Shown in pieces: positions 10,045-35,571 of a stretch of 64,000 nt of DNA (the first letter of the stretch is position 1; each line of letters starts with the position of its first letter). Source of the DNA: Limonium bicolor (taxonomy: Eukaryota > Streptophyta > Magnoliopsida > Caryophyllales > Plumbaginaceae); assembly GCA_023374045.1 (NCBI GenBank), contig CM041779.1, positions 272,524,062 to 272,588,061 of the forward strand, written 5' to 3'. The translations under genes and the position numbers were made by a program. The notes below the pieces were generated by a model. That model searched no databases, was not told the DNA's origin, and was given only the letters and a program-made list of their open reading frames with translations.

Positions 10045-13000
10045 TGTAACACCCCAACCCGAAATCCAATAACCTGAACGGCGATCACTCCCAAATAAAA
10101 TACAACTGCAGCGGAAATAAATACAACAACCGGGCGGTATTACAATGCCGTTGGCCACCCTTGTGACCAACAAGGCTAACTCCAAATACAATCTCCAAAA
10201 GTCACGGTCTGAATACGAATACAATCCGAGATACTAGGAATCAAACTCAAATGTAAAATACTTAAGTAAAAACAATATCTAGAAGAAGACTCCCATAGCT
10301 TGAATCTACCCCACCTACACTCGGTGTGGTAATCTTCTCAACTTCAGGTACCTGAAAAATGGGGGTGCCCCCAAAGGGGCTCAGCAAACAATGCTGGTAT
10401 GGAAAACGTGCAGCCCATCGTCTACCCCACACCAACTACTTTGTCGAATACATGCAGTTCATTTTTATAAAGCTGTAAACAAGCATATATGAGATAACAA
10501 GTATCCATACAAGGACAATAATGTCACAAGAACAAGACTTCAGAAGGTCAAGTTAGTGAACTGTAATCTTTAATGATAGTCGGGTCCACACAATGGGACT
10601 GACAGGTATAATGAATATCTCAAATAGTGAGGTATAGTGACCTCGTTAAGATTGAAAGGTTGGGAAATTAGTCCCTCAGAAGAAAACGTAGTTAACTCCT
10701 GTACTGAGAAATGTGGGAATCGACCCTCGAGAGGAATGAAGTCTCCCTCTCCACTGAACTGTTGGGAATTGAACCCTCGAGAGGAATAAAGTCTTCCTCT
10801 CCACTGAAATGTTCCGTCGCGACGTATAACTGAATAGGAGACGACCTGAGACAGGTACAACTCCTGTAGCATGCATGGCCAGATCCAACTGGGCTCCTCG
10901 TTCTCGTAGTATAGAATTGTTAGTGTCATATAAGACGTTAAACAAGAACACAATGTGTATTGTCAATTATCACGTTTAGGATAATGACGTTTGTTATAAG
11001 TGAAGTTAGTGAGAGACTTGTACAAGTTCTCGGTACAATAAAGGCAGGTATTTAATCCACTGGTATTGTAGTGTTTATGCGTGGGACATACACGTCGTAG
11101 TTAGCATCATTCACGCATAAAAATACACACAGTGCACAAGAGTAAAAACATTTTACATTAATTATCTTGGTCGTTATTCAAACAACAGATAGCACACAAG
11201 CCGGTGTAATCCGGTAGAAAACAGGTTGCAAGAATCCCATACCGTTCACCGTAGACTGTACTTGTTTTAATTCCCGGTCAACGTCTGGTCAAACAAAGTC
11301 CTAGAATAGGATTAACTGAGAGGGTTAATTTATGTTACCCTTATATAATAATTCTATTGGATCTTTTAACAAATCGTATTGTTATTTCATGTGAGGTTTA
11401 TTTCTTTTAATTACCTCATGATTTCATGTACAACTTATTTGTTATTCCTTTGATTTATTTATAAATCCTTTAATGTACATGTAGTATTTATTTATTCATG
11501 TACTATGTTTGTTGTTTATTTTGATTGTCTAGGTGACATAACAACTTATAATTCTTAACTATATTTATGTCATACATGGACATAATATTCTTATAGTTTT
11601 TATTATTCTCCTCCTTAACCATAATTATAATTATTGGTTACCTTTAATTTCCTTATAACTATATAAGTCATAGTTTCATCTTCATAATTCCTTTAATCAA
11701 AATTCTTTCTTCTAATTCCTCCAAATCCACATAGGACCTATATTTATTTAAATCTAAATTATTACCCTTATATTTCGGTTATTTACAAAACAACCACATT
11801 AATTCATAAACTTTACATTTAAATTCTAATCTCTCATATAATAGTTTTAATTCCTTATTTAATTAAATCACAAAACTACCATTAATATTTTGGTATATAC
11901 TTTTAAATATTGTAACTTTGAAAATTACAACTTAGCCCCTCCAATTCTCGGCCTATATATATATATTTCTTATAATTGCAATTTAGCCACAAAATCTTAT
12001 AATCTTTACATAATGCCTTATAAACTATAGTTTTAATTTTAATTCTCCATAAATGCCGAATATATATATATATATAAATTCTTAAATTACCAAACTAACC
12101 CCAAAGTAATTCGGCTTTGTCATTTATTTTTCCTTAATTACATTTTTATCCCAAAACTTTATAATAGTTTCTTAATAACTTATAAACTATAGTCTAAATA
12201 TTTAATTCCTCAAAATTTCGAAGGTGAACCTAATAAATCTCTTAATTATGAATTCGCCCACTAATAAGTTCCAAACTTTCATAACAACTTTTATAAATTA
12301 CATAATAGCCCAAAACTTTATAAAATGTTATTTTAACACTTGTTTAAATTATCTAAAATTCATAAACTTAATTCCTAACCTTATATTATATTATAATTAC
12401 ACCAAACAGACCCTTAACTCTCGGTTTTCACATTAAACTCACCAAACTTTGTAAAAATTACATTTAAGCCACATAACTTAATTAATTAGCCATTTAAGCT
12501 CTAATAAAATATTTTTAACTCACCAAACTTTATAGTATAAGTTTATATACATAAGTAGCTCATAAAAATCTATTTTTCACTTAGACAATTCGGCCATAAT
12601 TAAATAGCTACCATATAGTATATAAAAGTGGATTTATATGTCATAATAAATATACATAAATTCATATGAGTCATATAACTCATGTAAAAATTATTGTAAT
12701 GTCTTATATTGATTCTTAGCTCAAATAAAGTATTTTTTGCCCTTGACATTTCGGCTTGAACTTATATGTAACATAAATAAATTTTGTGACACAAAATGTG
12801 TCTTAAGGTAAATATTTCCATATATGTTATAGATTATATTTTTGGCATATAATACCATATAGTTTCGGTTTTAATTAACCTAGGAGATGTACATAATTTT
12901 TGTATAATTTTTAGGAGCTTAACAAAGCTTATAACATAATTTTACTTAGTAAACTTACTTCATAACAAAGGTGGTTAAGTGCTTGAACTCTTCTTGAATC

Positions 13001-14884
13001 TCCAAGCTTTCTCCAAGAAATTTTGATGCTCCCTTCGGTTATATGCAAGTGGTGAAGGAGTTTAGGAGTTAGATCTTCAATAAAGATCTTAGATTTGTAA
13101 GTAGTTTTACAAGAATTTACCTTAAGCTTTTCTCCTTATAATTTCGGCTCACTTAAGGTGGATGAAGAACAAGTTTTCCTTCATGAAAATGAAGAAGAAA
13201 AGAGCCTTAGAAGAGATAGAAATCGGTTACACAATAAAATGTGCTTTAAGGATTTTCAAGCTTGAAAACTACCTTAAGATAACCTTGAGATGCTCCTTGG
13301 TTTATGTTGGTTTTGGACAACCTCCTTGGAACAATAGTTGATGCCGAAATGCTATGGTGTGCTAGGAAGAGTTTTGCTTCAAGGCTTGACAAGAAATACT
13401 AGTAAATTACCTTAAAGATGAAGATAGAAGTTAAAACTCCATTAATGGACTTAAGAGCTTCAAAGGAAGAAGATGAAGCAAGAAGAGAGAGGAGGGAGCC
13501 TTACCAATTCGGTGGTGAAGTGTGCAAGAGGAAAAATGAGACTAAGCTCACGTAAGAAGAGAATGCAATTTGGAATTTGATTTTTGTTTTGTTAATTTTT
13601 AATGTCAAATGACTATTCTTTTTCCTTAGTTTATTACATGAGTTATTGGCTCAATAAATGCCCCTCTTTCCAGCATGTGTTCGGCTATAATGCAAGACAA
13701 GGCAATGTGGAGGGAAATAATGGTGAGCTAAATGACAAGGTAAGAAAAGTAAGGTTTATTCTTTTGATTTTTCTAAGTTTGTAACTTGTCTTCTTCTTCT
13801 TGTAGGTGGACGATTTGAAGGCCTGAATGGAGCTTACCAACCGGCCATTAAGAGCTTGGGACAAGCATGGAAGGTCACATGGAAAAGAAAGAAATCAAAA
13901 AGGTGGAATCTAGATCTACTTTTTGCCTTTTTCATTTTGTTTTTGTCTAGCACACATGGTCTTGTTTCCCTTCATAATTTCGACAGCATGGATCTCACAT
14001 GAGACTTATATTCTTCTGTCATTAAGTATTATAGCACATGGGAAGGTGAGTCACCATGTTCTATGCCTTTTATAAACTTTAAATGCAAATTTTATACTAG
14101 TTTTTGCACATAAAATCGGCCCCTATAGAGCACCTGGTTTGACACTGCCTCCAACTGATTTAGAAGGTCATTTTAACCCTATTTAATATTCTTAATTCGT
14201 GGCATGTCAAAAACTACAAGACAATTGCGTAAAACACGTTTTCGTGACACCCGAAGGTGTGTTTTTGTGCTCTAAGGAAATTTTGGGAAATAAATTGTTT
14301 TTATGAGTTCCAAGTGTTTATAAACACTTATTATAGTAAATAATGATATATTAAGACATTACATTAAGTTATATGGGGTTACATCAACCCACGACATAAT
14401 TTACGGGCCATCGGGACACTCCCGGGCAAAAAGGAGCGCTAAGAAATACTCCTGAGGTTTTTGTTGAATTTTGAGAAACCACTTCGTGGGTTCTCTTTAT
14501 AATGGTTAATAATGATGTTAGGAACTCTAAGAATTAATTTTATAGGAGTTCGTGCCACCTCGGCACTCCTCCAGGCTTTTCGTGCTTTAAGGGGCGTGCG
14601 TGAGCACTCCCGAGCATTTTGCGTTTTTGACTGAATATAGCCTAGGGAATATGTGTATATATTCATATAATGAGTGTATGACCATTTGGTTTGAGTTTTA
14701 GAAGGTCATACAAGGTCATGCTTGATCACATGTTTCTAAGGCGTTTTAGCGTTTATGGTGAAACAACTATTTTTACGTAACATTTTCATGCATGGGTTTG
14801 CATGCGTACGTGAAATGATTTATATTTGGGTTATACTCCATTAAATAATGGTTTTATAACATTAATTAGATTTGGGGTATTTCA
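10045..14884 (-). repeat. Element 1 3' LTR (4840 bp)
   Basis: Plus strand begins tgtaacaccccaacccg and ends ttggggtatttca. Matches 35572-40455 along its length with scattered substitutions and many 1-3 bp indels. Preceded on the element strand by PPT 14901-14885. Contains a doubled unit of about 53 bp (gggaatcgaccctcgagagg type) at 10710-10815 and long AT-rich stretches at 11330-12950. No protein-coding signal found. Confidence 0.93.
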
Positions 14885-14901
14885 ATCTACCCCCCTTAAA
14901 A
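14885..14901 (-). other. Terminal polypurine tract of element 1
   Basis: Minus strand TTTTAAGGGGGGTAGAT directly abuts LTR start TGAAATACCCC. The same motif precedes the 3' LTRs of elements 2 and 3. Confidence 0.9.
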
Positions 14902-14972
14902 GGACTTCGCCCCGAAGTCTCATATCTAAATTTATAAGGTTGTGGGGAATCAAGTTCCGTTAGGTATCCACA

Positions 14973-14999
14973 ACTTGATCTAGTTTTTAGGGATCAAGT
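14973..14999 (-). other. Conserved 3' UTR hairpin, element 1
   Basis: The 8-bp inverted repeat acttgatc / gatcaagt is separated by 11 nt, about 90 nt from the LTR. Equivalent stems occur in the 3' spacers of element 2 (25613-25634) and element 3 (54301-54322), with different loops. Confidence 0.5.
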
Positions 15000-15282
15000 C
15001 CCAAGTCTCTATATTCCTAAGTTCACAGTGTACATCAAACACAACAGGAATACTTTGGAACAATACAGTGTAATGTAATAAACACAATCACATTTCATAT
15101 CAGGTAGTGCAGCGTAGTGCACATGAACTTTCCATTGTAGTGTAACGAAGTACACATCAGCAAGTGGAAGTACAAAGTACATTCAAATACAGTGTTACAC
15201 AAGAACACATACAAGACAAGGTGTCATAGAAATGCACAGAAGTGCAACAAAAATGCATAATAACTCATAAACGAAAAAGGCT

Positions 15283-15298
15283 CTACCCCCCCAAAAAG
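15283..15298 (-). other. Internal polypurine tract of element 1
   Basis: Minus strand CTTTTTGGGGGGGTAG followed by AGCC, about 35 nt after the pol stop codon and 380 nt before the terminal PPT. Its context (gggggcgtacccctctttttgg) resembles the internal tracts of elements 2 and 3. Confidence 0.6.
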
Positions 15299-15331
15299 AG
15301 GGGTACGCCCCCGTACCCTAGACTAAAGTGT

Positions 15332-16126
15332 CTAGTCGGTAAATAATGAGGGAAACTTCGCTCGCATATCCGCTTCTAGTTCCCATGTGGCCTCCTCAAC
15401 ATCGTGGTTCGACCAAAGAACCTTCACGAGGCTCACAGACTTGTTTCGAGTCTCTCGTGTCTTTCTATCTAAGATTCGTTGCGGTGTCTCCACGTACCGC
15501 ATTGTTGGTTCTAATGATAGTGTCTCTGGTTGAAGAACATGAGAAGGATGAGGCATGTATTTCTTAAGCTGAGACACATGAAAAACATTGTGTACTTTGC
15601 GTAACTCTGCTGGCAAATCAAGTCGATATGCCACAAGGCCCACCCGCTCTATGATAGCGTAGGGTCCTACAAATTTCGGGCTTAGCTTGCCCTTCTGTCC
15701 AAATCTGAATACACCCTTCATGGGTGAAACTCGTAGAAATACCTGGTCGCCAACCGCGAACTCAAGGTCTCGTCGCCTCTCATCAGCATATGATTTCTGT
15801 CTGTCTTGTGCTGCTTTCATGTTATTTCTGATTTGTTGTACTTCTGCCTGAACTTGCTCCAAGTACTCAGGCCCAATGATGACGGTCTCACTAGACTCGT
15901 CCCAGCACAATGGTGTGCGACATGGTCTGCCATATAAGGCTTGAAAAGGTGACATCTGTATAGAGGCGTGATAGCTGTTATTGTATGCAAACTCGATGAG
16001 ATGTAATCTATCTATCCAGCTGCCCTGGAAATCCAAAGCACATGCTCGTAGCATGTCCTCTAAGGTCTGAATAGTCCTCTCTGACTGACCATCTGTCTGA
16101 GGATGAAATGCTGCGCTAAGCTTCAA
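15332..16126 (-). pseudogene. Integrase C-terminal half with chromodomain (element 1 pol, last segment)
   Basis: Open frame of 264 aa, the final part of the pol polyprotein. It starts inside the integrase catalytic core: the third acidic residue of the D,D-35-E triad lies in the segment FHPQTDGQSERTIQTLE at about residues 8-24. Then come the GPY/F-type module (KLSPKFVGPYAIIERVG, around residues 147-163) and a C-terminal chromodomain near residues 215-262 (ETPQRILDRKTRETRNK, then EEATWE). In chromoviruses the chromodomain steers integration towards particular chromatin. An in-frame TGA at about 16161-16163 separates it from the upstream part, where the family normally has Arg, consistent with CGA-to-TGA mutation. 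Confidence 0.9.
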
Positions 16127-16162
16127 TTCAGTGCCAAGTGCTTCGCGAGTAGCTCGCCAATA

Positions 16163-16735
16163 TCATGAGAGAAATCTAGTATCTCGATCTGAAACAATAG
16201 TCTTTGGTACTCCATGATGTCTGATAATCTCTTTCTCAAATAGTTCTGCCAACTTTGGCACTTTCCAAGTGTCTTTCATCGGAATAAACCTAGCAACTTT
16301 AGTCAGTCGGTCAACAACAACCCAAATCATGTTTAGTCCTCCTCTCGTAGGTGGTAGTCCCACCACGAAGTCCATAGAGATATCATAAAACTTCCATTCA
16401 GGAACTGGCATAGACTCTACCATACCTCTTAGTCGTCTATGTTCGAATTTCACTTTCTGACAAGTGAGACATCGAATCACATATTCTGTCACATCGCCCT
16501 TCATACCACTCCACCAGAAATACCTCTTTAGGTCTTTGTACATCTTAGAAGCTCCTGGATGGACAGATGTGGTAGAAGTGTGGGACTCTCGAAGAATATG
16601 CTCCTTTATATCAGTGCTGTCTCTGGGAATACACAATCTACCTTTTAATCTGATCAACCCATCATCGTGTAGCTGAAACTCATACTTCCCACCTTCAAAT
16701 GTACCGTCAGACAGCTTCTGACTAATCTCCATCAT
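16163..16735 (-). pseudogene. Integrase N-terminal half (element 1 pol)
   Basis: The 190-aa segment contains the HHCC zinc-binding domain (HILRESH, then CLTCQKVK, roughly residues 45-95). It also has the first two catalytic Asp of the integrase core: DISMDFVVGLP near residue 120 and VSDRDTRF near residue 183. It is bounded by TGA codons on both sides (16736-16738 upstream, about 16161-16163 downstream). Integrase inserts element cDNA into the chromosome. Reading is colinear with the neighbouring pol segments, so the stops are point lesions rather than gene ends. Confidence 0.9.
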
Positions 16736-17206
16736 TCACTGATCATTCTGCTGTGCGCTACGTATGTCGTCTATAAGGCTCGAGCTAGCCACAATGGCAT
16801 TTAAGGAATGTGCTCGTCGACTCAATGCGTCAGCTACTACATTAGCTTTTCCCTCTTTGTACTGCAAATCAATGTCATAATCCTTGAGAAATTCAACCCA
16901 TCTTCTTTGTCTCATGTTTAACTCCTTCTGGGTGAATACATACTTCAAACTTTTGTGATCCGAATATACGGTCATCTGGACACCATACAGGTAGTGGCGC
17001 CAGATCTTCAATGCAAAAACAATTGCTCCAAGCTCCAAGTCATGTGTGGGATAATTCTCCTCATGTTTCTTCAGCTGTCGGGAAGCGTAGGCGACTACCT
17101 TCCCATTCTGCATGAGTACACACCCTAATCCTCTGCCTGATGCATCACAGTAAACTTCATAACCCTCTGTGCCTTCAGGTATAGTCAAAACTGGTGTTGA
17201 TGTCAA
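16736..17206 (-). pseudogene. RNase H domain (element 1 pol)
   Basis: The 156-aa segment is a Ty3/gypsy RNase H. It has the first catalytic Asp in [10 protein letters not shown] (residue 21), the acidic residue in [13 protein letters not shown] (about 65), [10 protein letters not shown] (about 90) and the conserved ADALSRR end (about 131). RNase H degrades the RNA strand of the RNA:DNA hybrid during reverse transcription. An in-frame TAG just upstream (about 17213) cuts it from the RT connection region 17215-17371, which is itself open and reads as the expected GLAGYYRRF segment. Confidence 0.92.
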
Positions 17207-17371
17207 AGCATTCTACAAATACTGGAATGAGGTCTCACATTCTGTAGTCCATGTGAATGGTGCGTCCTTCTTCATTAAACTGGTCATAGGTTTTGCTATT
17301 TTGGAGAAGTCTCTGGCAAACCTCCTGTAGTAACCTGCTAACCCGAGGAAACTCCTGATATCAGTCACTGT

Positions 17372-17920
17372 CTATGGCCTAGGCCAGGTGCGAACTGCTT
17401 CTATTTTTGCTGGATCCACTGCGATCCCAGCATCTGAGATAACATGTCCTAGAAAGGAAACTCGGTCTAACCAAAACTCGCACTTGGAGAACTTAGCATA
17501 AAGCTGGTTCTCCCTTAAGATCTCAAGTACATGTCGGAGGTGACTCACATGCTCTTCCTTAGTCTTTGAATAAATTAGGATGTCATCGATGAATACAACC
17601 ATGGTCTTATCCAGCTGCTCTCTGAATAATCTGTTCATTAAATCCATGAAGACTGCTGGTGCATTTGACAAGCCAAAAGGCATAACTGTAAACTCATAGT
17701 GGCCGTATCGTGTTCTGAACGCTGTCTTTTCTATGTCTTGCTCCCTGATAGGTATCTGATGGTATCCTGATCTCAAATCGATCTTTGAAAACACCTTCGC
17801 TCCTCTTAACTGATCAAACAAATCAACGATTCGTGGTAGTGGATATTTGTTCTTTACTGATACTGCATTAAGCTCTCTGTAATCGATGCATAACCAAAGG
17901 CTTCCATCCTTCTTTTTCAC
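17372..17920 (-). pseudogene. Reverse transcriptase palm/fingers (element 1 pol)
   Basis: The 182-aa segment has all main RT motifs: [17 protein letters not shown] (residues 2-18), catalytic Asp in [11 protein letters not shown] (48), MPFGLSNAP (80-88) and the FIDD box (110-113), then FLGHVIS. A 1-bp expansion in the A run at 17921-17926 shifts the frame from the upstream SPWGAPVLF segment, and an in-frame TAG at 17372-17374 ends it in the connection region. Catalytic residues are intact, but this copy cannot make a continuous pol. Confidence 0.93.
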
Positions 17921-17998
17921 AAAAAAGCACTGGTGCTCCCCAAGGAGATACGCTAGGTCGTATGTATCCCTTGTCTAATAAATCTTTCAGCTGCTCCT

Positions 17999-18718
17999 TC
18001 AACTCAGCCATCTCTGCTGGTGCATACGGTATGGTGCCTTAGCTATGGGACCGGTACCTGGTAGTAATTCAATGGAGAACTCTACCTCTCTGGGTGGCGG
18101 TAAGCCTGGAAGCTCCTTTGGAAAAATATCTGGAAATTCTGACACCACTGGCATATCTGGATCAAAATCAGGGTCGTGCTCTACATCTTGAACATAGCAT
18201 AAGTATACTTCCTTCTGCTTCCTGACGTGTTTGTACATGGACATAGCAGATATCACTTTTATTGATGGTGCTCTAGGGCTCTGGCGGTATGATACTGTCA
18301 CTCCTAATGGGCTCTTAAGTAACAGTCTGCGCTCTGCACAAAGAATGCAGCCTCTGTGCCGCCCCAACCAGTCCATCCCGGCTATAACGTCGAATCCTAG
18401 ACCTCTGAACTCAATAAGGTCAATAGGAAATTCCTCCTCCTTAATACGGATAGTGGCTCCTCTATAAAGACGAGTGCAACTGATCTTCTCCTTAGACGGG
18501 AGTGCCACCTTAAAATCAGGTAACTCTACAGCGTCTAGCCCCAACTTCCCCGCAAGCGAAGGCGAAACGAAAGTATGTGAGGCTTCGGAGTCAAACAGTA
18601 CTAATACATCCACTCCATTAACAGGAAAGGTACCAGTGAGGATCGCGCCGCCCTTGCTGGCCTCCTCCTCAGTAAGAATACTTAAGGCACCTTCTGTCTC
18701 CTTAGCACAACCTAACAA
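17999..18718 (-). pseudogene. Retropepsin-type aspartic protease and pol linker (element 1)
   Basis: The open frame of 239 aa begins just after a candidate intron acceptor (18724 or 18711). The protease active site appears as LFDSEASHTFVS at residues 41-52; the usual D-S/T-G-A reads D-S-E-A here, so the glycine is lost. The distal protease part (FDVIAGMDWLGRHRG) is present, followed by the linker to RT (ELPGLPPPREVEFSIELLPG). A 1-bp loss near 18021-18024 shifts the frame before the [17 protein letters not shown] segment. The protease would process Gag-Pol; the DSE substitution alone would probably inactivate it. Confidence 0.88.
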
Positions 18719-18724
18719 CAGAAT

Positions 18725-18841
18725 CTAGGTAAGTACTTTGATATATGATGGGGTCTAAAGACATTCACTTTCATAACAATAATGCTTCATTGATGAGATT
18801 ATCTCCTTTCAGATGTCCAAAATCAATTACAACACTAGTAC
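18725..18841 (-). other. Candidate intron between AlkB block and protease (element 1)
   Basis: The minus strand starts AA|gtactag and ends cttacctag|ATTCTG after an AT-rich 117-nt stretch with no reading frame. An alternative acceptor is gttgttag at 18712. The donor lies inside the last codons of the AlkB frame, so splicing would remove its stop codon. The simplest donor/acceptor pair does not keep the protease phase (2 versus 0); an acceptor further in (ccttaag, inside the protease frame) would. Assignment is tentative. Confidence 0.35.
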
Positions 18842-19625
18842 TTTCTAAAAGTCAAACTTAATCTTCCTGGTTTCAAGTGAGTGGTGTTTATCACTGTCGA
18901 AGGTTCTGTGTTTAATTTAATCCTTTTAATTCCATGGTATAGCAACCTTGACTTTCCACCCATTATTAAAACATCTCCTGAATTCAATATGATTTTCTTT
19001 GCAAGATCCACACGCTTCTGCTCGCCATAAAGGAACTCTGCGTCATCTCCAATTGACAAAGACAATACTGGTATCCCCTGATCGAGGGACCCTTGTGTTT
19101 CATCCTTGTCTTGATGTAGCCCTAAGCGGCCTCCTTCTTCATAGAAGTTGATGATACATAGATCAGCCCTTAGATTGGGAACTGGATCTTCTTCTAGCTG
19201 TTGAGCTGTATTAACTGCTTGTTCCACAATTTGTAAAATTCTTCTGGGATTTTTGGTACTTGTGCTCCATCTCCATTTCTTGTATCCTGGTAGGTCTTTG
19301 AGTAAGGATTCCAATCCTTTCCTAAGCACATCATTTTCAGCTTCATCTTTGATCCTCCTGGAAATTCTGGAGTGTAGAACCCTCCTGGTCCTGCTCCCAA
19401 TTCTTGACATCTTCTGATGATTGCAATTTGTGTCTCCGGTGTTAGGTATCCTTTGAGTAATATCAAACCTGGTTGGATAACCTTACCTTGTTCGTTCCCT
19501 GGTTCTTGTACTTTGATAATGTTTTCTTCCAGGGAGGGCGGTGAGGGGATAGGAAAGCATATCTTATAGCTTTCTACGTGGTTTAAATTTCTACTAGTGA
19601 GTCTTATTAGTTCTTTCCTATGCAA
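18835..19625 (-). pseudogene. AlkB-family Fe(II)/2-oxoglutarate dioxygenase domain inside the retrotransposon
   Basis: Two overlapping minus-strand frames make one domain. Frame A (19625-19194) has QPGLILLKGYLTPETQ, GAGPGGFYTPEFPGG and the nucleotide-recognition segment. Frame B (19410-18835, 191 aa) has the catalytic core: NFYEEGG (88-94), metal ligands H99 and D101 in LHQDKDE, GDDAEFLYG (121-129), SGDVLIMGGKSRLLYHG with the distal ligand H159, and the 2OG-binding pair R183 and R189 in GRLSLTFRKY. One missing base near 19195-19235 shifts A into B. This family removes alkyl or methyl groups from nucleic acid bases by oxidative demethylation. The sequence style is plant nuclear ALKBH1-like (the At3g14140/At3g14160/At5g01780 group, from memory) rather than the AlkB of plant RNA viruses. 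It lies exactly between the Gag zinc knuckles and protease, on the element strand. Activity of the ancestor is inferred; this copy is broken. Confidence 0.92.
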
Positions 19626-19701
19626 CTAGGCAATCAAGGCATGCAAGCACTCATTCACATCATCCATTGCTCAATATTGGTTCACATGGGTTTAGAAGTA
19701 C
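19574..19701 (-). other. Candidate intron joining gag zinc-knuckle exon to AlkB exon (element 1)
   Basis: Donor CCAG|gtacttc at 19701; acceptor ccacgtag|AAAGC at 19574; a branch-like actaataa lies about 45 nt upstream of the acceptor. The 128-nt stretch has stops in the gag frame. The donor leaves phase 1 and this acceptor restores the AlkB frame, whereas nearer acceptors (cctag, catag) give immediate stops. This supports an in-frame gag-AlkB junction but is not proof of splicing. Confidence 0.4.
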
Positions 19702-20040
19702 CTGGGTTGGTAGAAGGACCAGCCTCATCTGAGCGGTCCGTGACATGCAGGGCGGGTCCCGATGCTGGGCCTTTGCCCCTATTTCCCTGAGCCTGGTTTG
19801 TTGGTGGAGGGCGAGTATCGCTAGCTCCATTCTTAGGGCCGGTGTTTACCTTTGCTCCCGGGCGGTAGTTCCTGCTCTCCGGGTTCTTAATGCACTCGAA
19901 GGCTTGGTGTCCCCATATCTGACAGTGGCGGCACTGGACTTTCTCCCCTTGGCAGTCTACGCCGGGGTGATCCTTTCCACAGTGTCTACAGTTGAAGCGG
20001 CGGACATACTTCTGGCCCGTGTTTAAGCCAGGTCCAGAAC
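19702..20040 (-). pseudogene. Gag exon with two zinc knuckles (element 1)
   Basis: Encodes the nucleocapsid region: CRHCGKDHPGVDC and CRHCQIWGHQAFEC, then a basic Pro/Gly-rich tail ending in a Ser/Asn-Pro segment. Knuckles bind genomic RNA during packaging. Element 4 has the same pair (CKRCGKDHPGVDC, CRYCHKEGHREFEC) in its fourth gag exon. The exon start is set by the acceptor cattag|GTTCTGG at 20041, which keeps phase with the upstream exon; the end is the gtacttc donor at 19701. Confidence 0.85.
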
Positions 20041-20128
20041 CTAATGAAATCAAGGTCAATTATACATTCCAATGGTACTGAAGTAATCACAAAAGTCTCA
20101 AATTTAACTGTTTGATTAGAGTGCCTAC
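20041..20128 (-). other. Gag intron B (element 1)
   Basis: 88 nt, TAAGG|gtaggc ... tttcattag|GT, phase 1. Element 4 has an intron at the equivalent place and phase (63727-63811). Removing it joins the basic linker to the zinc knuckles in frame. Confidence 0.8.
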
Positions 20129-20369
20129 CCTTAGATGGGTAGGTTTTCTGTGGAGTTGCCGCTCCGTAGGTTCCTGACTGGGGGTTCCCAGTAGTTTGGT
20201 TTCCCTTCCCTTGATAGGACCCCTGGCCTCTCTGATAGGGTTTGTTCCTTCTGTTGGAGTTCCCCTACTTGGCATCTTCGCCGCCAGGTCCATCCTTTCT
20301 CTTTTGGGAGCTCAAAGCATCCCTTCTCTTGCATGTAATCTCCACAACGGAGGCAGCATGGTAACATTC
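20129..20369 (-). pseudogene. Gag middle exon, basic linker (element 1)
   Basis: Starts ECYHAASVVEI directly after acceptor ttcag and continues as a Lys/Arg/Gly/Asn/Gln-rich linker. An in-frame TAG at 20265-20267 (after GGEDAK) breaks it. Element 4 has a 74-nt intron at the corresponding point that is absent here. It ends at donor AAGG|gtaggc. The N-terminal six residues match ECYDAAS in element 4. Confidence 0.8.
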
Positions 20370-20459
20370 CTGAAATCTCAAGGTGTAAATTTCCAAATCT
20401 CCCATGACGGAGTATAATAGGTAATAAAATTCTATCTGGTCACATTTCTCCTGCTTTAC
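20370..20459 (-). other. Gag intron A (element 1)
   Basis: 90 nt, TTGCAG|gtaaag ... gatttcag|GAATG, phase 0. Equivalent to intron 1 of element 4 (63315-63393). Read through, it carries stop codons. Confidence 0.8.
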
Positions 20460-20471
20460 CTGCAAGCTGGT

Positions 20472-20476
20472 GGGGA
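20472..20476. other. Target-site duplication of element 2 (left)
   Basis: gggga before tgtaacacc; repeated at 34771-34775 after the other LTR. It falls in the gag coding sequence of element 1. Confidence 0.9.
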
Positions 20477-21054
20477 TGTAACACCCCAACTCAATCCAAA
20501 TGTGGTCTCGCAACTTAACAGCATATATATATACATGTCACAGCGGAATTCTTTACACTCCAGGACCTTGCCACGGTCTGACTACAGAATATACCGAACA
20601 ATAGTGCATTACAACCTTAACCAAATACATAATCTTCTTACAATCCTCTCACATCCTATACATCTTACTAACTCAATTGCCATACGAGTGTACATGCACA
20701 ACTCGTAGGCCACACTTAACCCGTAACACTTGTCCCCCTTCTTACTCTCGCGACGGCCGCTTCCTGATGTACCTGTGTAGTAAAAACAGCCCCCAAAGGG
20801 GGTCAGCACGAATGCTGGTACGATCCCCTCATGGCCCCCAAGCTAACGTGGCTACGACGACTAATTGTCGATAGCATGGAGGTTGATTAAATGCACAACA
20901 TAATAGTAAATGCTGTAAACAACAATCCATATATGAACAATCAAAGTTCAAACACAATGAACGACTTAAATGCGTTCCCTTAATTAGAGAGTTAGTTATT
21001 TAACTCCTTAAGTAATGTTCCCTCTTAATCTTAGTCCATCCTTATCTCACCTCA

Positions 21055-21360
21055 ATCTTAGTCTTATCTTAATCTTAGAAACAACCATCCTTTAATAAGG
21101 CGTGGATGTAGCTTATCTTAATCTTAATATTACAAACCATCCTCTAAAAAGGAATGGTTGCAACTTACCTTAACCTTACCTTAACCTTAATAATACAAAT
21201 CATCTTTTAAAAAGGAATGATTGTAACTTATCTTAATCTTAACTTAATCTTAATCTTAATAATACAAATCATCCTTTAAAAAGGAATGATTGTAACTTAT
21301 CTTAATCTTAACTTATTCTCAGAATACAAACCGTTCCTGGAGGGGAATGGTTGTAGCCTA
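21055..21360. repeat. Tandem array of hairpin units in element 2 3' LTR
   Basis: Five units of about 70-80 bp. Each has an inverted repeat such as acaaatcatcctttaaaaag / gaatgattgt, separated by cttatcttaatcttaa spacers. Between units the arms change together (accat with atggt, atcat with atgat). The same array is in the 5' LTR at 30832-31138. Confidence 0.75.
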
Positions 21361-22184
21361 AGTCCAAACCTGGGATTTAGGTGATCCCACCGCACCATCT
21401 TAATGCCACCTACCCTGGACGGGAATCCAGCGTAGCTGAGCCGGCAACCGGCCCTAGGCTACAAGTCCGAAGACAAGTCCTTAAGCGGAGGGCGGATCTG
21501 ATTCAGATACTGTCCCCCTTTTCCCTTAGCATGCATGACCGGAGATCGGTCCCGGGTTTCCTCACTCAAGTTCCAGTTAGTAATAGTCTCAAGACCATGT
21601 TTGTTGGTTAACCTCTTTCGGTTTATATCAGACCCATATTAGGGTGTGTTCCTTAGTCTCACTCAATTCCTTACTAAACATTGGTTAGTAAGTTCTCACG
21701 GTATGTTGTGTTAGTTTTCAAACATCACACAACAATACAAGAAATATAGTATATTCCGGTTGCATGCTTTATCTTGTTTAGTGAGCACACAAAAACAAAT
21801 AGCACACAAGCCGAGGGACACCTCGTTAGCAAGCAGGTCACAAGAGAACTGTACCGTTCACCGTTGGCCGTTCAGTTGCTTAATCTCTTCCGGAGTCCAA
21901 TTTCCAAGTCCTAAAACATTCATTCAGTTTTAGGTTGTTAATCACTTAACTCAATTCAACTTACTTATCTTACTTAACTTACTTAACCCTTAATGACTCC
22001 AACCTAACACCTCTTAAGTCTTACAACTTAATCTTACAAACTTAATCTTAAACTTTTAAGTTTATTCTTAACTTAATCCCTTAGGTCTTTATACCTCTAA
22101 TCATCATTGCCCCCTTAATGGGGTACCATTAATACCACTAAACTCTCTTAGGGTTTCTTTCTTTTTTTTTTTTAATTTTTTTTT

Positions 22185-22312
22185 ATGGTCCGACCGACCC
22201 ACCGACCGACCCACCCCCTGGGTAGGTCGGCTGCAGAGAACATCCAACTTCACAGTTTCAGCCCGACCGACCCAGACTGGGGTCGGTCCCCTGGGTAGGT
22301 CGACTGCAGAAA
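22185..22312. repeat. GC-rich inverted-repeat patch in element 2 3' LTR
   Basis: ccgaccgaccca ... tgggtaggtcgg pairs occur twice, preceded by a T-run at 22166-22183. The right LTR copy at 31946-32053 has one fewer short unit. Resembles the gtccgacc hairpin array in the LTR of element 3. Confidence 0.65.
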
Positions 22313-25021
22313 CTTCCCATACATTGTCAAACTTTCTCCAAATTTTTCCTCAAGCCTTCTAATGTGTTCTAACAACATTTGGCACATCAAACACACCTTA
22401 TAACCTCCACCAAACTCATTAAAATCACCTCCAAAGATCATTCCAACCTTTAGCTCAATTCTTGTAAGAAATTCCTAACACTTGTTAACTAATTCCTTAT
22501 TTCTCTAACATGTGCATTCTATCTAAAACTTCAACTAACCAAAGTGTTTCTTTCCTACCCATATAACTTCTCCTTAACATCATTGCACTCCATCTTTGCT
22601 TGTTAAACCTTCCAAGGTCATCTTGCATGTCCATGCACAATTTTCCCTTCTTTCCTTTGGTTACTCATCACTCTTAAACTCTTAAGCATACCTATACCTT
22701 TCTTTCCATTACCTTAATACCTCGACATTTTTCTTCATTTACCTTAACCATGCAACGCCCTCCTTAGACATTCCCACTTCTTTTATGCAACTTACTCACC
22801 ATTCTCATGATCATAACCTCTTATACGTTACTAGTCATTTCCTTGACGACTTACAACATTCTCCTACCATTTTCACTTCCACCACCCAAGTCCGCACATT
22901 ACCATTCAACCAAACCTTACTAGTCCACCACCAACATCACCACCTCTTACACAAACTTCCCGAACTCTCATTGTTCTTCTCTTAGTTCATACCTAAATCA
23001 TCTCAAAGCATTATACATCATTTCCTCCAGATTTGCACAAGTCTTACCATTCCTCATACCATGACTTTGGTGTGTTTAGTACACTCGCCAATCCTCTAAT
23101 TCCTCCTAGACATCTCTAGGTCACTCTAAACCTCAAGAACTCCTTAGTTAACTCATTTCCACCCAATTTTTCTTTTCATGCTCCCTGGTAAACCCTAGGG
23201 CATATTAACTCACCACTACCACTTAAACACTTTGTTTTCTACTCAAATTTTGCCATAGCTTCTCTAGCATCTTATCATGCCCAACTGCATTGTTTTCCTC
23301 ATTCAACCATCTCACACACATCAAGTTCTTTCTCATCATATCTCATCACCCAAACCAACTCATTCTCAACAAACTCAATATATTGCAATAATCTTAAATT
23401 GCATAGCACTAAGGCTCTTAAATGACATGGCTCTTAGGCCCTTAAATGACATAAACTTAAACACTGAATTTCCCACATATAAAAGCTTTCAACCTGCAAA
23501 TACACTCATCAATCTCATAGTAGTTATAATGTTCTTAAAACTCATCTTAAACTTATATTACTAACTCATTCCCATTGGCTCCTTAGTCACAAGTTCACAA
23601 GCTTCTTTAAGTTCTTTTTCTTAGGTTATATAACCCAATACACAATGTAAGCTCTAAGATACATTGGTACTTATCTAAAACTCATTCCTTAATCTTAAAC
23701 CACCATTAGATAAGCATTTTACCTTGTTTTCTCAACCTTATCTTAATCTCCTCCTTAGACCTTCTTCTTGCATAGATCTCGGCCACCACTTAAATTCCCC
23801 TTGCCAATGTTCTAATCAATATTCAAGGACTCATATGAGTACTAAACAATGCACTAACCTCAAGGAATAAAAACCTAGGTTAGAAATTTGTTCTAAGGCA
23901 TAAAAGTGGATGATTACCTTTGAAGTCTCAAGGTAGACTTTGGCATTGAATGAAATAGGACCTCCACTAGTCCTTGGTGAATAAATCAAGCTAGAACAAG
24001 GCATAAAAACATAGCCCCATGAGAAGGAATTTTCGGCCATGTACAAGAAATGATGGAAACATGGTTTTTCTTACATTTTCTTTACCTTAAGAGAATGGAG
24101 AAGCTAATGAGCTCTTCAAACTTGATTTTCCTCCATCAATGAAGTTTTCTCATGGCACCAAAATGGAGCTTTGAAAGATTTGAAAAGATAGAAAGATAGG
24201 TCTTGACCTAACTAAGAATAATATGTGTTTAGTTTTTGATTTGGAGCTAAAATGAATAAGTTGTTGCCAAAGCAAGGTGAAGCAACAATGGAGGCTGCTT
24301 GGGACGGTTTGGAACAGAGGAAATAAGAGAAGAACCGTGGAAGAAGAAGAAATGAAGAAGAGAGGAGAGAAGGTAGCTTATAAGGATATTTTGCTTTATA
24401 AAAGCAAAATAACTTTTCTCACTTTACTCTTCTTTTCCTTTCTCATTTGATGACTCATGTGGTGACTCCCCACATCAAAACCGGCCCCCTCTAATAAATG
24501 GAGATATTTATGGTCTTGGTTGACCATCTTATTGACTTATGTTGACTTATGTCTTAACTAGCACTAAATAGTTACTATTCACTAAACAAGGCACATAATC
24601 AGGAAATTTTTGATTTCCCATTGATCCAGACCTCCTAATGTGATACTAATTAGTACACATGTTGATTAAAGAGTAATGATGGACATTTAGCCACTCAAAA
24701 CTCAATTCTAAGACAATTTCTCAAAAATGTGCTTTAAGACTTCTTAAAGCACATTTGTGTTTTAACTTGTTTTCAAGCTTGGTTTTCTTTGCTAATTGAT
24801 TTAAAATGACCATTAGAATATTACTAAGGTCTTACCATGATATTTGGGTACTCACCCAAGTCCCTCCAAGCTTAGAGCACATTTTTGCCCTAATTGCCCT
24901 TAAGGCATTTCCTTGTGTTTTCCTTGGTTTAAATTGTCTACCAATCTTTCTAAGGCATATTTTAGCCTTACTACATCATAATTTGATGTGTACTTAGCAT
25001 ACTTAGGTTTGGGGTATTTCA

Positions 25022-25039
25022 ATCTACCCCCCTTAAAAG
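25022..25039 (-). other. Terminal polypurine tract of element 2
   Basis: Minus strand TCTTTTAAGGGGGGTAGATT next to LTR start TGAAATACCCC. Confidence 0.9.
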
Positions 25040-25513
25040 AACTTTGTACCCAAAGTTCCCATGCATCTTATCTTATTAGAATACATGTATCACCACATTC
25101 CTCAGATCATATAGATCATACTTCTGTATACTTAATCTCATTGGATCATTAGATCTGACACATTCTTATACTTAAATATCACACAACATGCTTAAGCATG
25201 TATAGCACTCAAAATTCTCCTAGTTTCTTTTGATGATTAAAACGTTCACATAACTTCCAACGTATTCTCCCATGTCACCGGTCCGTAGACAATGGCTCAT
25301 TCGTCCTCGTCACCATGGGCCAGAATACAAAACACGCTGCTCTCCCCATGTCACCGGTCCGAAGACAAAGGCTCGTGCGTCCTCGACTTCATGGGCGAGA
25401 CTCATAAAAGGTAATCCTTTTTACGAGGTCATGTGAGGAATAATTCCTCTAATTAAAAATACAATCAACTCCAATTTCATTTTACCCTAAGGCCTCTATC
25501 CTTAGTGTGATTT

Positions 25514-25612
25514 AATTGTGACCACTGGTAGGGAGTTTCAGAATCATCCAACCCTGATGTGATCAGCATCAGTGTAGAACTATCCTTCCACCCCAATTTG
25601 TGTTCGGTTTCC
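25514..25612 (-). other. Conserved 3' UTR block, element 2
   Basis: The reverse complement is close to 54323-54410 of element 3 (ggaaaccgaacacaaattgg, then ctgatgctgatcacatcag), far more alike than the surrounding spacer. Possible cis-acting RNA signal. Confidence 0.6.
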
Positions 25613-25634
25613 CTTGATCCCTAGAAAATCAAGT
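25613..25634 (-). other. Conserved 3' UTR hairpin, element 2
   Basis: cttgatc / (a)atcaag arms with a short loop; the position next to the conserved block matches element 3. Confidence 0.45.
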
Positions 25635-26177
25635 TCCACCTCCCACGTCATTTTCAAACATCCAAATAATTCACTCATGTCCAATTTTCTATCTTTTAGT
25701 TCTTCTAATCATAATCAATACATCTCCAAGTGTGGACTCAGTCCATCGAACATTCCCGATTCATCTCTTAGTAATTACCTCAGATTTAAATTCCTACTAA
25801 GTTCTATAACTGTCCCATACCAATTCTCACCATCTTATATCTCATAGCATTACTATCTTCTTCCTCATGCTCATGTCAAATTGTATCTCATAATGTTATC
25901 TTATTCTTATCTCCCACATAGTCTCATATTGACTCATACCTCATATATTCTTATTTCTTAAGTCTCCTTAATCCTCTTCCTTAATTCTCTTAACTTGTAC
26001 TCACACCGGAGTTAACAAGATAGGTACTTAATATGTATGGTATTCTCATCTTTTGTGTGCAATAACCATGATTTATCTCAAAATGTTTATGTAAAACATA
26101 TTCTCAAATTATTTTGTGCTATGCACACCGTAGTTTATGTACTCAGTACACAAACATACGCTAAGCGGTTTTCGCTC

Positions 26178-26191
26178 TACCCCCCTTAAAA
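26178..26191 (-). other. Internal polypurine tract of element 2
   Basis: Minus strand TTTTAAGGGGGGTAGAGCG, preceded by a gattacgtgggcgtaatcc inverted motif and followed by aaaaccgctt. The same context occurs at 53662-53710 in element 3. It lies about 1.15 kb before the terminal tract. Confidence 0.75.
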
Positions 26192-29100
26192 TGGATTACG
26201 CCCACGTAATCACATTATATCATCCTTGAACATAAGTTCAAGATGTCTAATTCTTACCAAGCATTCTAGCTTCCATGTCATCATCTTACTTAGAATTCGA
26301 TCAGGAATGACTTAGTCTCTGTATCGAGGATTCTTAACGGTACTTATACCGTTTCCTTAACTTAGTTTGGTCTAATCTCAAAGTAGTGGTCTGCTAGCTT
26401 CCGCTGCACCACTCTGATGTTCTTAGGCTTAACTGCTTCACTTATCTTTTTATGGCATTGTATATCCTCCTGCCTCCTTACAGTTTAGGTATATTGGTCT
26501 CTCAATGGACACGTGTTATCTTTATATATACACGGCCTTAATGAGTTGTAACTCGTCTATCCATTCTCCTTGAAGATCTTATGTTCATACTCATAGTGTT
26601 TTCTCGAATGTCTAAGTTGTTCTTTCCAACTGACCTTTGGTCTGAGGATGATCCTTAATTTGAAACTACTGTTTAGTGCGCATTGCGCTTTACATTCTTA
26701 ATCCCTTACATCTTAAGACATGTCCAATGTCTGTACTTAACAATCCGTGCTCTTCGCACTTCATAGTCCTTAATTATCTGTTCTCTGGTTCCTCTGTGTT
26801 GCTGGTTCAACTGAATTCTTCTCCTCGACTGTTTGTGGTAGTAGTTGTTCTTGTCTGATCTTGCGTCGTTGTCCGTGGTACGGAGTCGACTACCTCCCGT
26901 GTTCCTCCACTACTGTCTACATGCATGGGGTACCTTACTGTACATTACTACTTACCCAACTAACTCATAAATGAGCGTGTCAGGCCTGCAAGCCCCTGTG
27001 GGGTGCAGTCGTCCCACGTCTCGTTTTAGTAAACTCATAGTGTCCGTCACACGTTTAGCTATTGCTAATTATGAAGTATTCTGTTGTCGATCTCCTCTTC
27101 ATCGTTCCATAATAACATTTATTGTTCTTCTTGAAGTTAATCAAGGGAAATCCATTATTGTGTTCTTGGTATGTATGCTCTAGCTCTTTTGTATCCCGTA
27201 CTGATTCTATTTCTTAGTAGCTTAGGTCTCTTTCCATAGAGCCTCTTATCTTCTTTCTCCTATTAGGAAGCACTTCCATTCCTTAAGGAATGGGTTGTGT
27301 GCTTCCTGTGTAATCTTACCAAACCATGTCCAGACTACTGGCATCAATGCACAGTCCGTCTATCATCTTATTTTCTTACTTATGCTGGTCTTAACTCATA
27401 AATCTAATTGCCTCAGTGTCAATATTTGACGGCTCATACATAATGGTCGCCTTACCGCGCACCATGACTTAATCCACTTATCTAACTATTGTACTCACGA
27501 CCACTACTACCGTGGTAGTTGGCCTTTACCATGTTGCCCATTGATGGTGCAACCTCTTACTCATTTATTCTAATGTCTTACCTTATAATCAATCCCTTCT
27601 TGGTGTAAACACACTGGGAGTTCTCTCATTTCGGTATTGGCGGTTGTCGTACCGTGTTGTAAAATAGTTGACTCTTGATATGAAGATGTTATGCTCCAAT
27701 CTCAGATTCGTAAGTAGGCTAATTTCTTTCGCTTTCTTTCATCCTTAGTGATGTTATCTACCATGTAGTTTAACTGATTACTGAAGAAGTCATCCACTGA
27801 ATCACAAGCTCTTCTGAGCATTGATTAATTGACGTGCCACAATGTGCAGTCACAATATTTATCTCTGACCATTACTAATTCTTACATCCTGGGTGTTGAG
27901 TATGAGGTCTATCTCTGCAACCTTCCTTATTACTCAAGTGTATCTGGTATGTTCTAAGGTAATCTCAAGGTTCATAGTTTCCATTTTCTAAATAAAGTGT
28001 ATTTTATCTCTAATATGTGAAAGCCATTTTGAGGGGTTCATTCCCACTCATGGCCTCACAACAAGGAGAGGTATCCCCACCCTAAAAGGCATGGTTCGTC
28101 TTCCGCTCCTGTCCTTAGCATTATCTAAATTTTCTCATTGGTACCCTTTCTTGGTAATGTTCTCCCAATCTAAGTTATAGGTTTGGTAACCGTTCATATC
28201 TACAAATTGTAGTCCCTTCGTGGCTTAAACAAGCTCTCTTATAACTTACTGCACCTCGGGCTCTGATGTGGTTAACATCCTTGGCTCGTAGGCTCTTAGT
28301 GCTTAATGTCTTAGTTCATTATTTGTGCTCTTACTCATCTGCAGGTCATTCTCTTAAGATTCTGGTTCTTGAGCACTATCCACCGTTAGGTTATACACTA
28401 AATGTAGTATCGGGTTTCATGGTAAGTTGCTGCATCCTGCTTCCTGCTATGGAAGTTGTTCAGGTGATCTGAGGTACTTAATGTCTTTGACACTACTGTC
28501 ATTTTACTAGACTTATGTCTTTTAATAGTCAAGGTTGGGTTCATGTTAGGCGTTTGCCTTACGGTGTCCAAGTTGGATATCATCCTGTCGTCTTATTCTT
28601 CCATCTCAACGCTTCGTTCAACTTCTGTTGATTACGCCACCCTTTGATGATCAATCATACTTGGGTGTTAATGAGTTAAACAAACAGTGTTAACTGTCAT
28701 TCATCAGTTGTTCGGCTTGACTATGCCCGCTCTGTGGGGGTAGTCCTCTGAGCTCCTTTTCCAGGGTTGTACGACTTTAATCCTTAGTGGTTATAGCTTA
28801 CGTTTATTTCTTTTATCCTTGTTTTCTGGGTTTTCCAACATCTTCATTGAAGAATGTTGGTATCTGCAAGTTTTAACGATCATCTCGGGAGCTTTATCCC
28901 GCTCTTTTTAGAAAACGTTGTGTCAACGGTCTCAATGGTATCTTATAATACATCCCTTGTATATCATTGCTGATATAGTGCTTTTGCTCGCATTTCCGAG
29001 CGATCTCTTAAGTTTTCCCCTTGGAGTTCGGGATTGTGTTCTTACCGTACTGTCGGTTGTTGTTGTAGTGGGTTATACCGTTGCTAATATTTATACTATT

Positions 29101-30010
29101 TAGTATTTTGTCTAAGCTCAGCTCCCTGCTGACTGATGTGTCGGCTCATCTCATCATGGTCAGGCCGTCAGGCCCTTCCAAGGTCCTATTTTTCTATTCT
29201 CATGGATTTACAATCCGGTATTAATATGTGTTACAACTGTAGCGTTCTCCTATCTCGCCTTGATGGCTTTTCATGTAGCTTAACCGTGGTAGCACTTGAT
29301 ATGGCAAGTGCGCCATGCAGGATGGGTTATTGGTACAAGGTACATCGGTAGTGACACTTCCTTCTAATTTCCATGTAATTTGTAGTCCTCGGGACTCCTT
29401 CAATAATCCCTTATTTTGGATAACCGTCCATCCGGCAGTTTCCTTGTTGTTTGACAGTACTGTCATCTACCAGGGAGTTCCTCTTTCTGAGGGAACCCCT
29501 TAATATTTTCTTATGTCTGAATCCTCGCTCCTGTCTCCACACATTTTGTTGTGGTTACTCAGTAATGATTCTCCTTAGGCACTACTTCGTAGCCTATTTC
29601 GGTATACAATTTATATGAGTTCCTATCGTCGTCCGCATTATGTTGGCCAGGTTTGTAACCTTTTTCATTGTATGGGGTTTGGAGTTCCCGTTTCTAACTG
29701 GACTTCCCAGTAATCTCAATCCTTATGCTTGGTATTATCCTACTGTTATGCTCCTTCAGACCACTGTCCGGTACTCATGTCGCTTCCCTTTTCCTTTCTA
29801 TTGCACCCGTAGTGCTTTTCTTATCATTGTATTGCGGGTTATTTCGACTGCGTAGCATGTCGACCCATGTTGCCGGTAATTACCGTTCTTTTACTGGTAA
29901 GGTTCCATTGGTAACGCCTGTTTCGCCGATGCGCTCCATTAAAAATCTCCCAGTTCTCCTTAACTGTTATGCAACAAGATGTTTCTCGTATTGCTTACTG
30001 TTAGCTAACT

Positions 30011-30057
30011 GCCAGATCGGGTTCCCCCGAGTAAGAGAAGGCTTTCTTCTCTCTGGC
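30011..30057 (-). ncRNA. Three-way-junction leader RNA, element 2
   Basis: Minus strand: outer stem GCCAGA/TCTGGC, first arm GAGAAG...CTTCTC, second arm CGGG-GGAA-CCCG with a GNRA-type tetraloop. It lies about 190 nt after the PBS. Element 3 has the same fold at 49675-49722 with tetraloop GAAA. The site suits a packaging or dimerisation signal; function is inferred. Confidence 0.55.
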
Positions 30058-34100: not shown

Positions 34101-34141
34101 GAAGAAGAGAGGAGAGAAGGTAGCTTATAAGGATATTTTGC

Positions 34142-35566: not shown

Positions 35567-35571
35567 CTTTT

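What the first reader, a model, noticed from the sequence alone, without database searches (positions are those of the whole stretch)
18835..19625. AlkB-type demethylase domain captured between gag and protease of a Tekay retrotransposon
Seen: a full AlkB fold signature (NFYEEGG, H99-x-D101, H159, R183/R189 and the nucleotide-recognition segment) on the element strand, exactly between the Gag zinc knuckles and the protease. Known: AlkB dioxygenases remove methyl groups from DNA or RNA bases, and several plant RNA viruses encode one. I do not know of an established Ty3/gypsy family carrying one. Inference: the element took a host ALKBH1-like coding sequence and could use it to demethylate its own RNA or cDNA, or to blunt host RNA or DNA methylation. 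This is the best candidate for a new system here.
Basis: partly seen in the sequence, partly recalled or inferred. Interest (0 to 1): 0.95.

Follow-up and report, generated by a model that had tools for sequence, protein, structure and literature searches.

The report
Demethylase exon inside a jumping gene
A high-copy plant retrotransposon family carries, between its coat-protein gene and its protease gene, a well-preserved exon for an AlkB-type (demethylase-family) enzyme, which would be joined to the coat protein by alternative splicing and is likely to strip methyl marks from nucleic acids inside the element's particles.

Summary
The AlkB block is real and is not a one-copy accident. It lies on the minus strand in a chromodomain Ty3/gypsy element (10045-40455), split inside gag by a younger element. 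In the window's own genome, protease-sampled copies of this family (A) have AlkB upstream of protease in 20 of 20. A divergent family (B) has the same gag-AlkB-protease order (10 of 10). Reverse transcriptase places A, B and an element from elsewhere in one clade (100/97.6). AlkB is under purifying selection: dN/dS 0.15 in A and 0.16 in B, against 0.30 for gag and 0.24 for protease. Active-site residues are nearly invariant. AlkB sits in an intron-like stretch: one conserved gag donor and two conserved acceptors in matching phase would give Gag-AlkB or Gag-Pol. Splicing, activity and substrate are inferred. The window's own AlkB is broken (two frames); intact copies exist. Orchid Gypsy elements with another AlkB (ALKBH5-type, Ogre/Tat lineage) are published, so the kind is known. 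New here: the chromodomain lineage, the ALKBH1 type, the position, and the predicted Gag fusion. The AlkB tree leaves open one capture or two.

The parts
10045..40455 (-). Chromodomain Ty3/gypsy element that carries AlkB; LTRs 35572-40455 (5') and 10045-14884 (3'), TSD TACAG
   Evidence: self-alignment and ends; LTR K2P 0.018
35555..35566 (-). Primer binding site TGGTATCAGAGC (methionine-tRNA type, recalled)
34771..35184 (-). gag, capsid part, cut by the inner element
   Evidence: PF03732 9.5e-20, open frame
20377..20459 (-). Putative short intron in gag, 83 nt
   Evidence: GT-AG at the same gag position as in the second gag of the window; not tested across copies
20041..20128 (-). Putative short intron in gag, 88 nt
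   Evidence: restores the gag frame; GT 27/29, AG 27/29 in L002-L030; but gap rate no higher than in its flanks
19702..20040 (-). gag exon with two zinc knuckles, ending at the donor
19700..19701 (-). 5' splice donor GT, phase 1
   Evidence: GT in 19/19 protease-sampled A copies; 30/30 B copies at the matching place
19574..19701 (-). Noncoding stretch between donor and AlkB exon
   Evidence: gap openings 13.4 per kb per pair against 2.85 in AlkB
18835..19573 (-). AlkB (ALKBH1-type) exon with its own stop codon; broken by a frame offset in this copy
18712..18834 (-). Noncoding stretch from AlkB stop to the protease acceptor AG (18713-18712)
   Evidence: gap openings 17.3 per kb per pair; AG 19/19; 28/30 in B
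15335..18711 (-). pol: protease, RT, RNase H, integrase, chromodomain; seven in-frame stops in this copy
20477..34770 (-). Younger LTR element inserted in gag (not part of the AlkB element)
   Evidence: TSD GGGGA, LTR K2P 0.006

Best explanation
The block is an ALKBH1-type AlkB exon that a high-copy chromodomain Ty3/gypsy lineage carries inside an intron-like stretch between gag and protease and keeps under purifying selection; alternative splicing from one gag donor would yield either a Gag-AlkB or a Gag-Pol protein, and the Gag-AlkB form is predicted to bring a demethylase into the element's particle. Shown: the order gag-AlkB-protease in many copies of two divergent families, the conserved frame and active-site residues, dN/dS near 0.15, conserved GT and AG sites in compatible phase, and noncoding behaviour of the stretches on either side of the AlkB exon. 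Inferred: that the splice sites are used, that Gag carries AlkB into particles, and that the enzyme removes N-methyl groups (from the element's RNA, its tRNA primer or its cDNA) so as to help reverse transcription or blunt host marking.
For: Same arrangement in 30/30 AlkB-sampled A loci, one of them the window itself, 20/20 protease-sampled A pieces, one with only part of AlkB, 10/10 B loci checked and 5/6 pol-sampled pieces. dN/dS of AlkB 0.15 in 19 protease-sampled A copies and 0.16 in 27 of 30 B copies; C part read out of frame 1.27 and 1.85. Active-site residues kept in 18-19 of 19 and 29-30 of 30. Donor GT 19/19, AlkB acceptor AG 19/19, protease acceptor AG 19/19 in A; 30/30, 28/30, 28/30 in B, by my count of the rows; 5/5 for all three in pol-sampled copies. 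In 18 of 19 A copies no in-frame ATG lies between the last upstream stop and codon 34 of the exon. RT clade of window, six B copies and P0069 100/97.6. P0002 (AlkB) and P0069 (pol) are each listed from one contig of 26,561 bases. Model of P0002 matches OsALKBH1 best (5xoi, TM 0.92 by target).
Against: No RNA evidence of splicing. The window copy is broken, and 8 of 19 protease-sampled A copies are not intact. Two of 30 B copies have lost the AlkB acceptor and two the protease acceptor. L087 has no AlkB in the 1.3 kb fetched; a tandem-repeat sequence abuts its protease. B copies were picked by AlkB score, so their low indel rate is inflated. B exons do hold in-frame ATGs, so a stand-alone start is possible there. 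The gag 88-nt intron shows no more gaps than its flanks. The best AlkB tree does not unite the element AlkBs. Activity and substrate are untested.
Confidence: 0.68

Rival explanations
1. AlkB is made as its own protein from unspliced genomic RNA (re-initiation after the gag stop, internal or non-AUG start) and is not joined to Gag.
For: The exon has its own stop codon; B exons hold in-frame ATGs; the orchid precedent is a separate ORF (PMC9289625).
Against: In A, 18 of 19 copies have no in-frame ATG before codon 34 of the exon and all 19 have an upstream in-frame stop; the acceptor AG and its phase are conserved in both families.
Confidence: 0.2
2. A retained passenger or dead gene fragment without function for the element (including the single-copy processed pseudogene).
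For: The window copy is broken; all 30 loci of the first search share its frame offset, but that query held 62 out-of-frame residues and favoured such copies.
Confidence: 0.03
3. The AlkB acts mainly on host nucleic acids (chromatin 6mA, host RNA or tRNA pools) to ease silencing, rather than on the element's own RNA, primer or cDNA.
For: Rice ALKBH1 acts on 6mA of single-stranded or unpaired DNA and binds genes (PMC10469495, abstract only). The orchid authors leave both options open (PMC9289625 Discussion).
Against: The predicted fusion to Gag would keep the enzyme with the element's particle (inference).
Confidence: 0.25
4. Families A and B captured their AlkB separately.
For: In the best AlkB tree the B rows, P0002 and the 12 host rows share a fork against A (96/88).
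Against: A single clade of the element and unnamed AlkBs is not rejected (p-AU 0.242); the RT clade is single; AlkB lies at the same place, with donor and acceptors in the same phase.
Confidence: 0.2

Closest known systems
Phalaenopsis Gypsy_Pa_2799 family with paALKBH5-like ORF2 (PMC9289625)
   Same: Plant Ty3/gypsy LTR retrotransposon, high copy, carrying a complete AlkB domain with all cofactor residues; proposed to serve epitranscriptomic escape.
   Different: There: Ogre/Tat lineage, tRNA-Arg primer, dual RNase H, 25 kb, separate ORF2 of 565 aa, ALKBH5-type, m6A activity shown in vitro. Here: chromodomain lineage, methionine-type primer site, ALKBH1-type, between gag and protease inside an intron-like stretch with acceptors for a predicted Gag fusion; no activity test.
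Ogre elements with a spliced intron between gag-pro and pol (PMC6317226, passage)
   Same: Noncoding GT-AG stretch separating coding regions, removed from only part of the RNA (there shown, here inferred).
   Different: Here the stretch lies between gag and protease, and holds an enzyme exon with its own acceptor.
Plant ALKBH1 / rice OsALKBH1 (5xeg, 5xoi)
   Same: Closest solved sequence and fold; same active-site residues.
   Different: Element AlkBs lie outside the 12-row host clade (100/100); the exon lacks the introns seen in a host-type locus, L082.
AlkB domains of plant RNA viruses (Alphaflexi-, Betaflexi-, Closteroviridae; named in PMC9289625)
   Same: A parasite-borne AlkB domain thought to act on RNA.
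   Different: RNA viruses with another replication cycle; not compared by sequence here.

Membership tests
AlkB family, ALKBH1 type | PF13532 domain with HxD...H iron site and RxxxxxR 2-oxoglutarate site | tested here: met
   residues kept in 18-19 of 19 A and 29-30 of 30 B copies
AlkB family, ALKBH1 type | Closest to ALKBH1 rather than other AlkB homologues | tested here: met
   best solved relatives by sequence and fold are OsALKBH1, with E. coli AlkB next; the tree holds ALKBH1-type and bacterial rows only
AlkB family, ALKBH1 type | Demethylase activity | not testable with these tools
   no assay
Ty3/gypsy chromovirus | Order gag-PR-RT-RH-IN-chromodomain between LTRs, 5-bp TSD | tested here: met
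   the chromodomain scores 25.0 bits against a Pfam cut-off of 25.1
Ty3/gypsy chromovirus | Methionine-tRNA primer site (most chromoviruses, PMC6317226 passage) | tested here: met
   TGGTATCAGAGC next to the LTR; that this is the tRNA-Met complement is recalled
Tekay clade | RT/RH/INT branch with Tekay reference elements | not tested
   no reference set of named clades at hand
Phalaenopsis AlkB Gypsy family (Ogre/Tat) | Ogre/Tat lineage with tRNA-Arg primer and no chromodomain | tested here: not met
   chromodomain match and another primer site; RT not compared directly
Phalaenopsis AlkB Gypsy family (Ogre/Tat) | ALKBH5-type domain | tested here: not met
   best matches OsALKBH1; ALKBH5 structures rank far lower
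Retrotransposon with a regulated gag-pol intron (works like Ogre) | Spliceosomal intron removed from part of the RNA | tested here: inconclusive
   GT/AG sites and phase conserved and flanks noncoding, but no RNA

The most novel reading that the evidence does not exclude
A chromovirus lineage turned a captured ALKBH1 into an alternative exon, so that one gag donor makes Gag-AlkB or Gag-Pol. Gag-AlkB carries the demethylase into the particle, where it edits methyl marks on the genomic RNA, on the initiator-tRNA-type primer (m1A58) or on nascent cDNA, steering reverse transcription and escaping host marking.
Probability: 0.4. Interest if true: 0.9.

Novelty: new variant of a known kind. Interest (0 to 1): 0.75.

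Why it matters
It would be a second, separate capture of an AlkB enzyme by plant LTR retrotransposons, from another AlkB subfamily and in another element lineage. That argues that methylation marks on nucleic acids are a recurring battleground between plants and transposons. The predicted Gag-AlkB fusion makes the question directly testable: look for the splice junctions, then assay the enzyme on tRNA, RNA and cDNA. If Gag-AlkB is made, it would also be a new way of loading an accessory enzyme into a retroelement particle.

Tried and rejected
Single-copy processed pseudogene: rejected. Programmed frameshift in AlkB, suggested when all 30 loci of the first search shared the window's frame offset: rejected, because that query held 62 out-of-frame residues and picked such copies; 19 of 19 protease-sampled copies differ from the window there. 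AlkB as part of one long polyprotein: 320 candidates of that length, none at E<=0.001. Viral contigs: no relatives of AlkB or RT. Codon comparison without alignment gave dN/dS 0.57 for A; copies with paired indels were compared out of register, so I replaced it, which skips gapped codons and stops. Copy number by DNA pattern: not completed. Host gene: one intron-containing, partly frame-broken ALKBH1-type locus found (L082); the 150-place cap is filled by element-like copies, and an intact host gene was not identified. The element that owns the gag at the window's right edge has no AlkB or protease match in the next 3 kb (L081).

Full report
What is in the window. The finding lies on the minus strand. 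Two ORFs, 19625-19194 and 19410-18835, match the two halves of PF13532 and of rice OsALKBH1 5xeg. They lie in different frames, so this copy's AlkB is broken. Upstream are two gag zinc knuckles, downstream the protease. The element runs from 10045 to 40455 with LTRs of 4.8-4.9 kb, TSD TACAG and a TGGTATCAGAGC primer site. Its gag is split by a younger element, 20477-34770, TSD GGGGA. LTR divergence (K2P) is 0.018 for the AlkB element and 0.006 for the inner one. Pol of this copy has seven in-frame stops.

Copies in the same genome. The window's genome is held (2.92 Gb, 2,686 contigs). With the AlkB C-part ORF as query, 150 places were scored of 55,913 first-look candidates, 79-100% identical; 150 is a cap, so this is a lower bound. 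All 30 loci fetched (L001 is the window itself) have zinc knuckles, both AlkB parts and protease matches; in L007 only the first part of protease is matched, and in L015 protease lies further off. That query held 62 out-of-frame residues and so favoured copies with the window's frame offset. I therefore sampled by protease: 150 places scored of 62,514 candidates, all 93-100% identical, and fetched 1.28 kb upstream of 20 of these 150. AlkB was found in 20 of 20 (only part of it in L080) and zinc knuckles in 19 of 20. Of the 19 copies used (L080 dropped), 11 have an intact AlkB exon. At the place of the window's frame break all 19 differ from the window.

A second family. Dioscorea AlkB P0006 as query gave 150 scored places of 47,656 candidates, nearly all covering the whole query, open frames mostly about 252 residues. 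Ten of ten loci checked have zinc knuckles (34-57% identical to the window's), AlkB C part (64-70%) and protease (49-55% over the long matches) in the same order. These were sampled by AlkB. Sampled instead by pol (P0069 as query, 42 scored of 156,683 candidates), 5 of 6 pieces fetched have AlkB upstream of pol, 3 of the 5 intact. In the sixth, L087, a sequence with a tandem repeat abuts the protease.

Beyond this genome. P0002 (AlkB) and P0069 (pol, the best protease hit at 59%, next best 45%) are each listed from one ENA contig of 26,561 bases. They therefore almost surely lie on one contig, which I could not open. P0069 is 84-87% identical to pol copies here. An RT tree of 26 rows puts the window, six B copies (the 6 of 20 loci with a long RT piece free of stops) and P0069 in one clade (100/97.6). 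Next to it (89/92) stand P0070, P0072, P0073 and P0075. P0070, P0072 and P0073 hold gag and protease in one protein without PF13532, with zinc knuckles and protease adjoining in two and close in the third. So the relatives without AlkB have an uninterrupted gag-protease junction at this place.

AlkB tree. In a tree of 35 rows the 12 host-type rows form a clade (100/100); P0003 and P0005 go with A (99/94), P0002 with B (88/76). The element AlkBs are not one clade in the best tree: B, P0002 and the host rows share a fork against A (96/88). Holding the element and unnamed AlkBs together is not rejected (p-AU 0.242). With the single RT clade and the same place and phases in A and B, one capture before A and B split is my preferred reading; two captures stay possible.

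Selection. In 19 protease-sampled A copies AlkB has dN/dS 0.15 (pN/pS 0.16, 0.11-0.24 over codon resamples). The C part read out of frame gives 1.27 and 1.85. The gag exon of the same copies gives 0.30. In 27 of 30 B copies (L051 and L058, a third subfamily, and L054, broken acceptor, left out) AlkB gives 0.16 and protease 0.24. Gap openings per kb per pair in A: AlkB 2.85, gag 4.56, the stretches either side of AlkB 13.4 and 17.3. In B: 0.10 against 18.8 and 18.7, protease 2.58; B copies were chosen by AlkB score, which makes that contrast too strong. Active-site residues are kept in 18-19 of 19 A and 29-30 of 30 B copies.

How it would be expressed. The gag frame runs to a GT donor in phase 1: GT in 19/19 A and 30/30 B copies (my count of its rows). 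The protease frame opens at an AG in matching phase (19/19 A; 28/30 B), and the AlkB frame opens at another AG in the same phase (19/19 A; 28/30 B). Five of five pol-sampled copies with AlkB keep all three. In A, 18 of 19 copies have no in-frame ATG between the last upstream stop and codon 34 of the exon; B exons do hold ATGs. The best reading is alternative splicing from one donor: Gag-AlkB or Gag-Pol. This is inferred from DNA; there is no RNA. The gag itself has putative short introns, 20459-20377 and 20128-20041; the second shows GT and AG in 27 of 29 copies, but its gap rate (11.6) is not above its flanks (10.9, 8.7). A second gag in the window has intron-like stretches at the same positions. 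Among plant LTR elements, PMC6317226 names Ogre as having a spliced intron between gag-protease and RT (passage; also passages and its section on Ty3/gypsy).

What it would do. A model of P0002 (mean pLDDT 87, 24 sequences) matches OsALKBH1 best (5xoi, TM 0.92 by target, 51% identity), then E. coli AlkB, some with methylated DNA. Rice ALKBH1 acts on 6mA, preferably of single-stranded or unpaired DNA (PMC10469495, abstract). A review says ALKBH1 acts mainly on tRNA m1A58 and that its loss raises tRNA-iMet (PMC10826226, passages). An element primed by a methionine-type tRNA, with an ALKBH1-type enzyme on Gag, could act on primer, genomic RNA or cDNA. Which of these is my inference.

Origin. A host-type ALKBH1 locus in the same genome (L082) has introns inside the AlkB region and some broken frames. 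The element exon has none of these introns, as expected if it came through spliced RNA. Only this one host-type locus was found.

What is known. PMC9289625 (read: outline with abstract, parts 1-4 of 7, and the Discussion) reports an Ogre/Tat family in Phalaenopsis with an ALKBH5-type ORF2 that demethylates m6A RNA in vitro, and no such domain in its consensuses from the other genomes of a 121-genome screen. Searches of the held library listed no other paper that I could recognise, from listed titles and abstract starts, as describing AlkB in a plant LTR element; subscription papers and preprints are not held. PMC7264820 (part 1 of 3) says that extra ORFs lie most often between pol and the 3' LTR. 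So the kind is known and this is a new variant: another lineage, another AlkB type, another position, and a predicted Gag fusion by alternative splicing.

Noticed in passing
20459-20377, 20128-20041 (-); 63315-63386, 63727-63811 (+): Two gag genes of divergent elements have intron-like GT-AG stretches at the same gag positions; multi-intron gag genes look unusual for LTR elements.
   Followed up: partly
62683-64000 and L081: A second related gag starts at the right edge; in the next 3 kb outside the window no AlkB or protease match was found.
   Followed up: partly
20477-34770: Younger LTR element nested in gag; its inner part 25022-30257 shows only a decayed integrase remnant (26489-26689), so it looks non-autonomous.
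   Followed up: no
44921-49472 and 54915-60023: Another LTR-like direct repeat pair (about 99% identical) with a TGGTATCAGAGC primer site at 49478; no coding region recognised between.
   Followed up: no
1-3790 and 4274-8048: A 3.8 kb direct repeat, 97.5% identical, with only 0.5 kb between the copies.
   Followed up: no
L051, L058, L085, L086, L088: A third AlkB-bearing subfamily by donor sequence, AlkB 63-75% identical to B over the long matches.
   Followed up: partly
L082:1948-2952: Host-type ALKBH1 locus with introns in the AlkB region and some broken frames; may be a decaying paralogue.
   Followed up: partly
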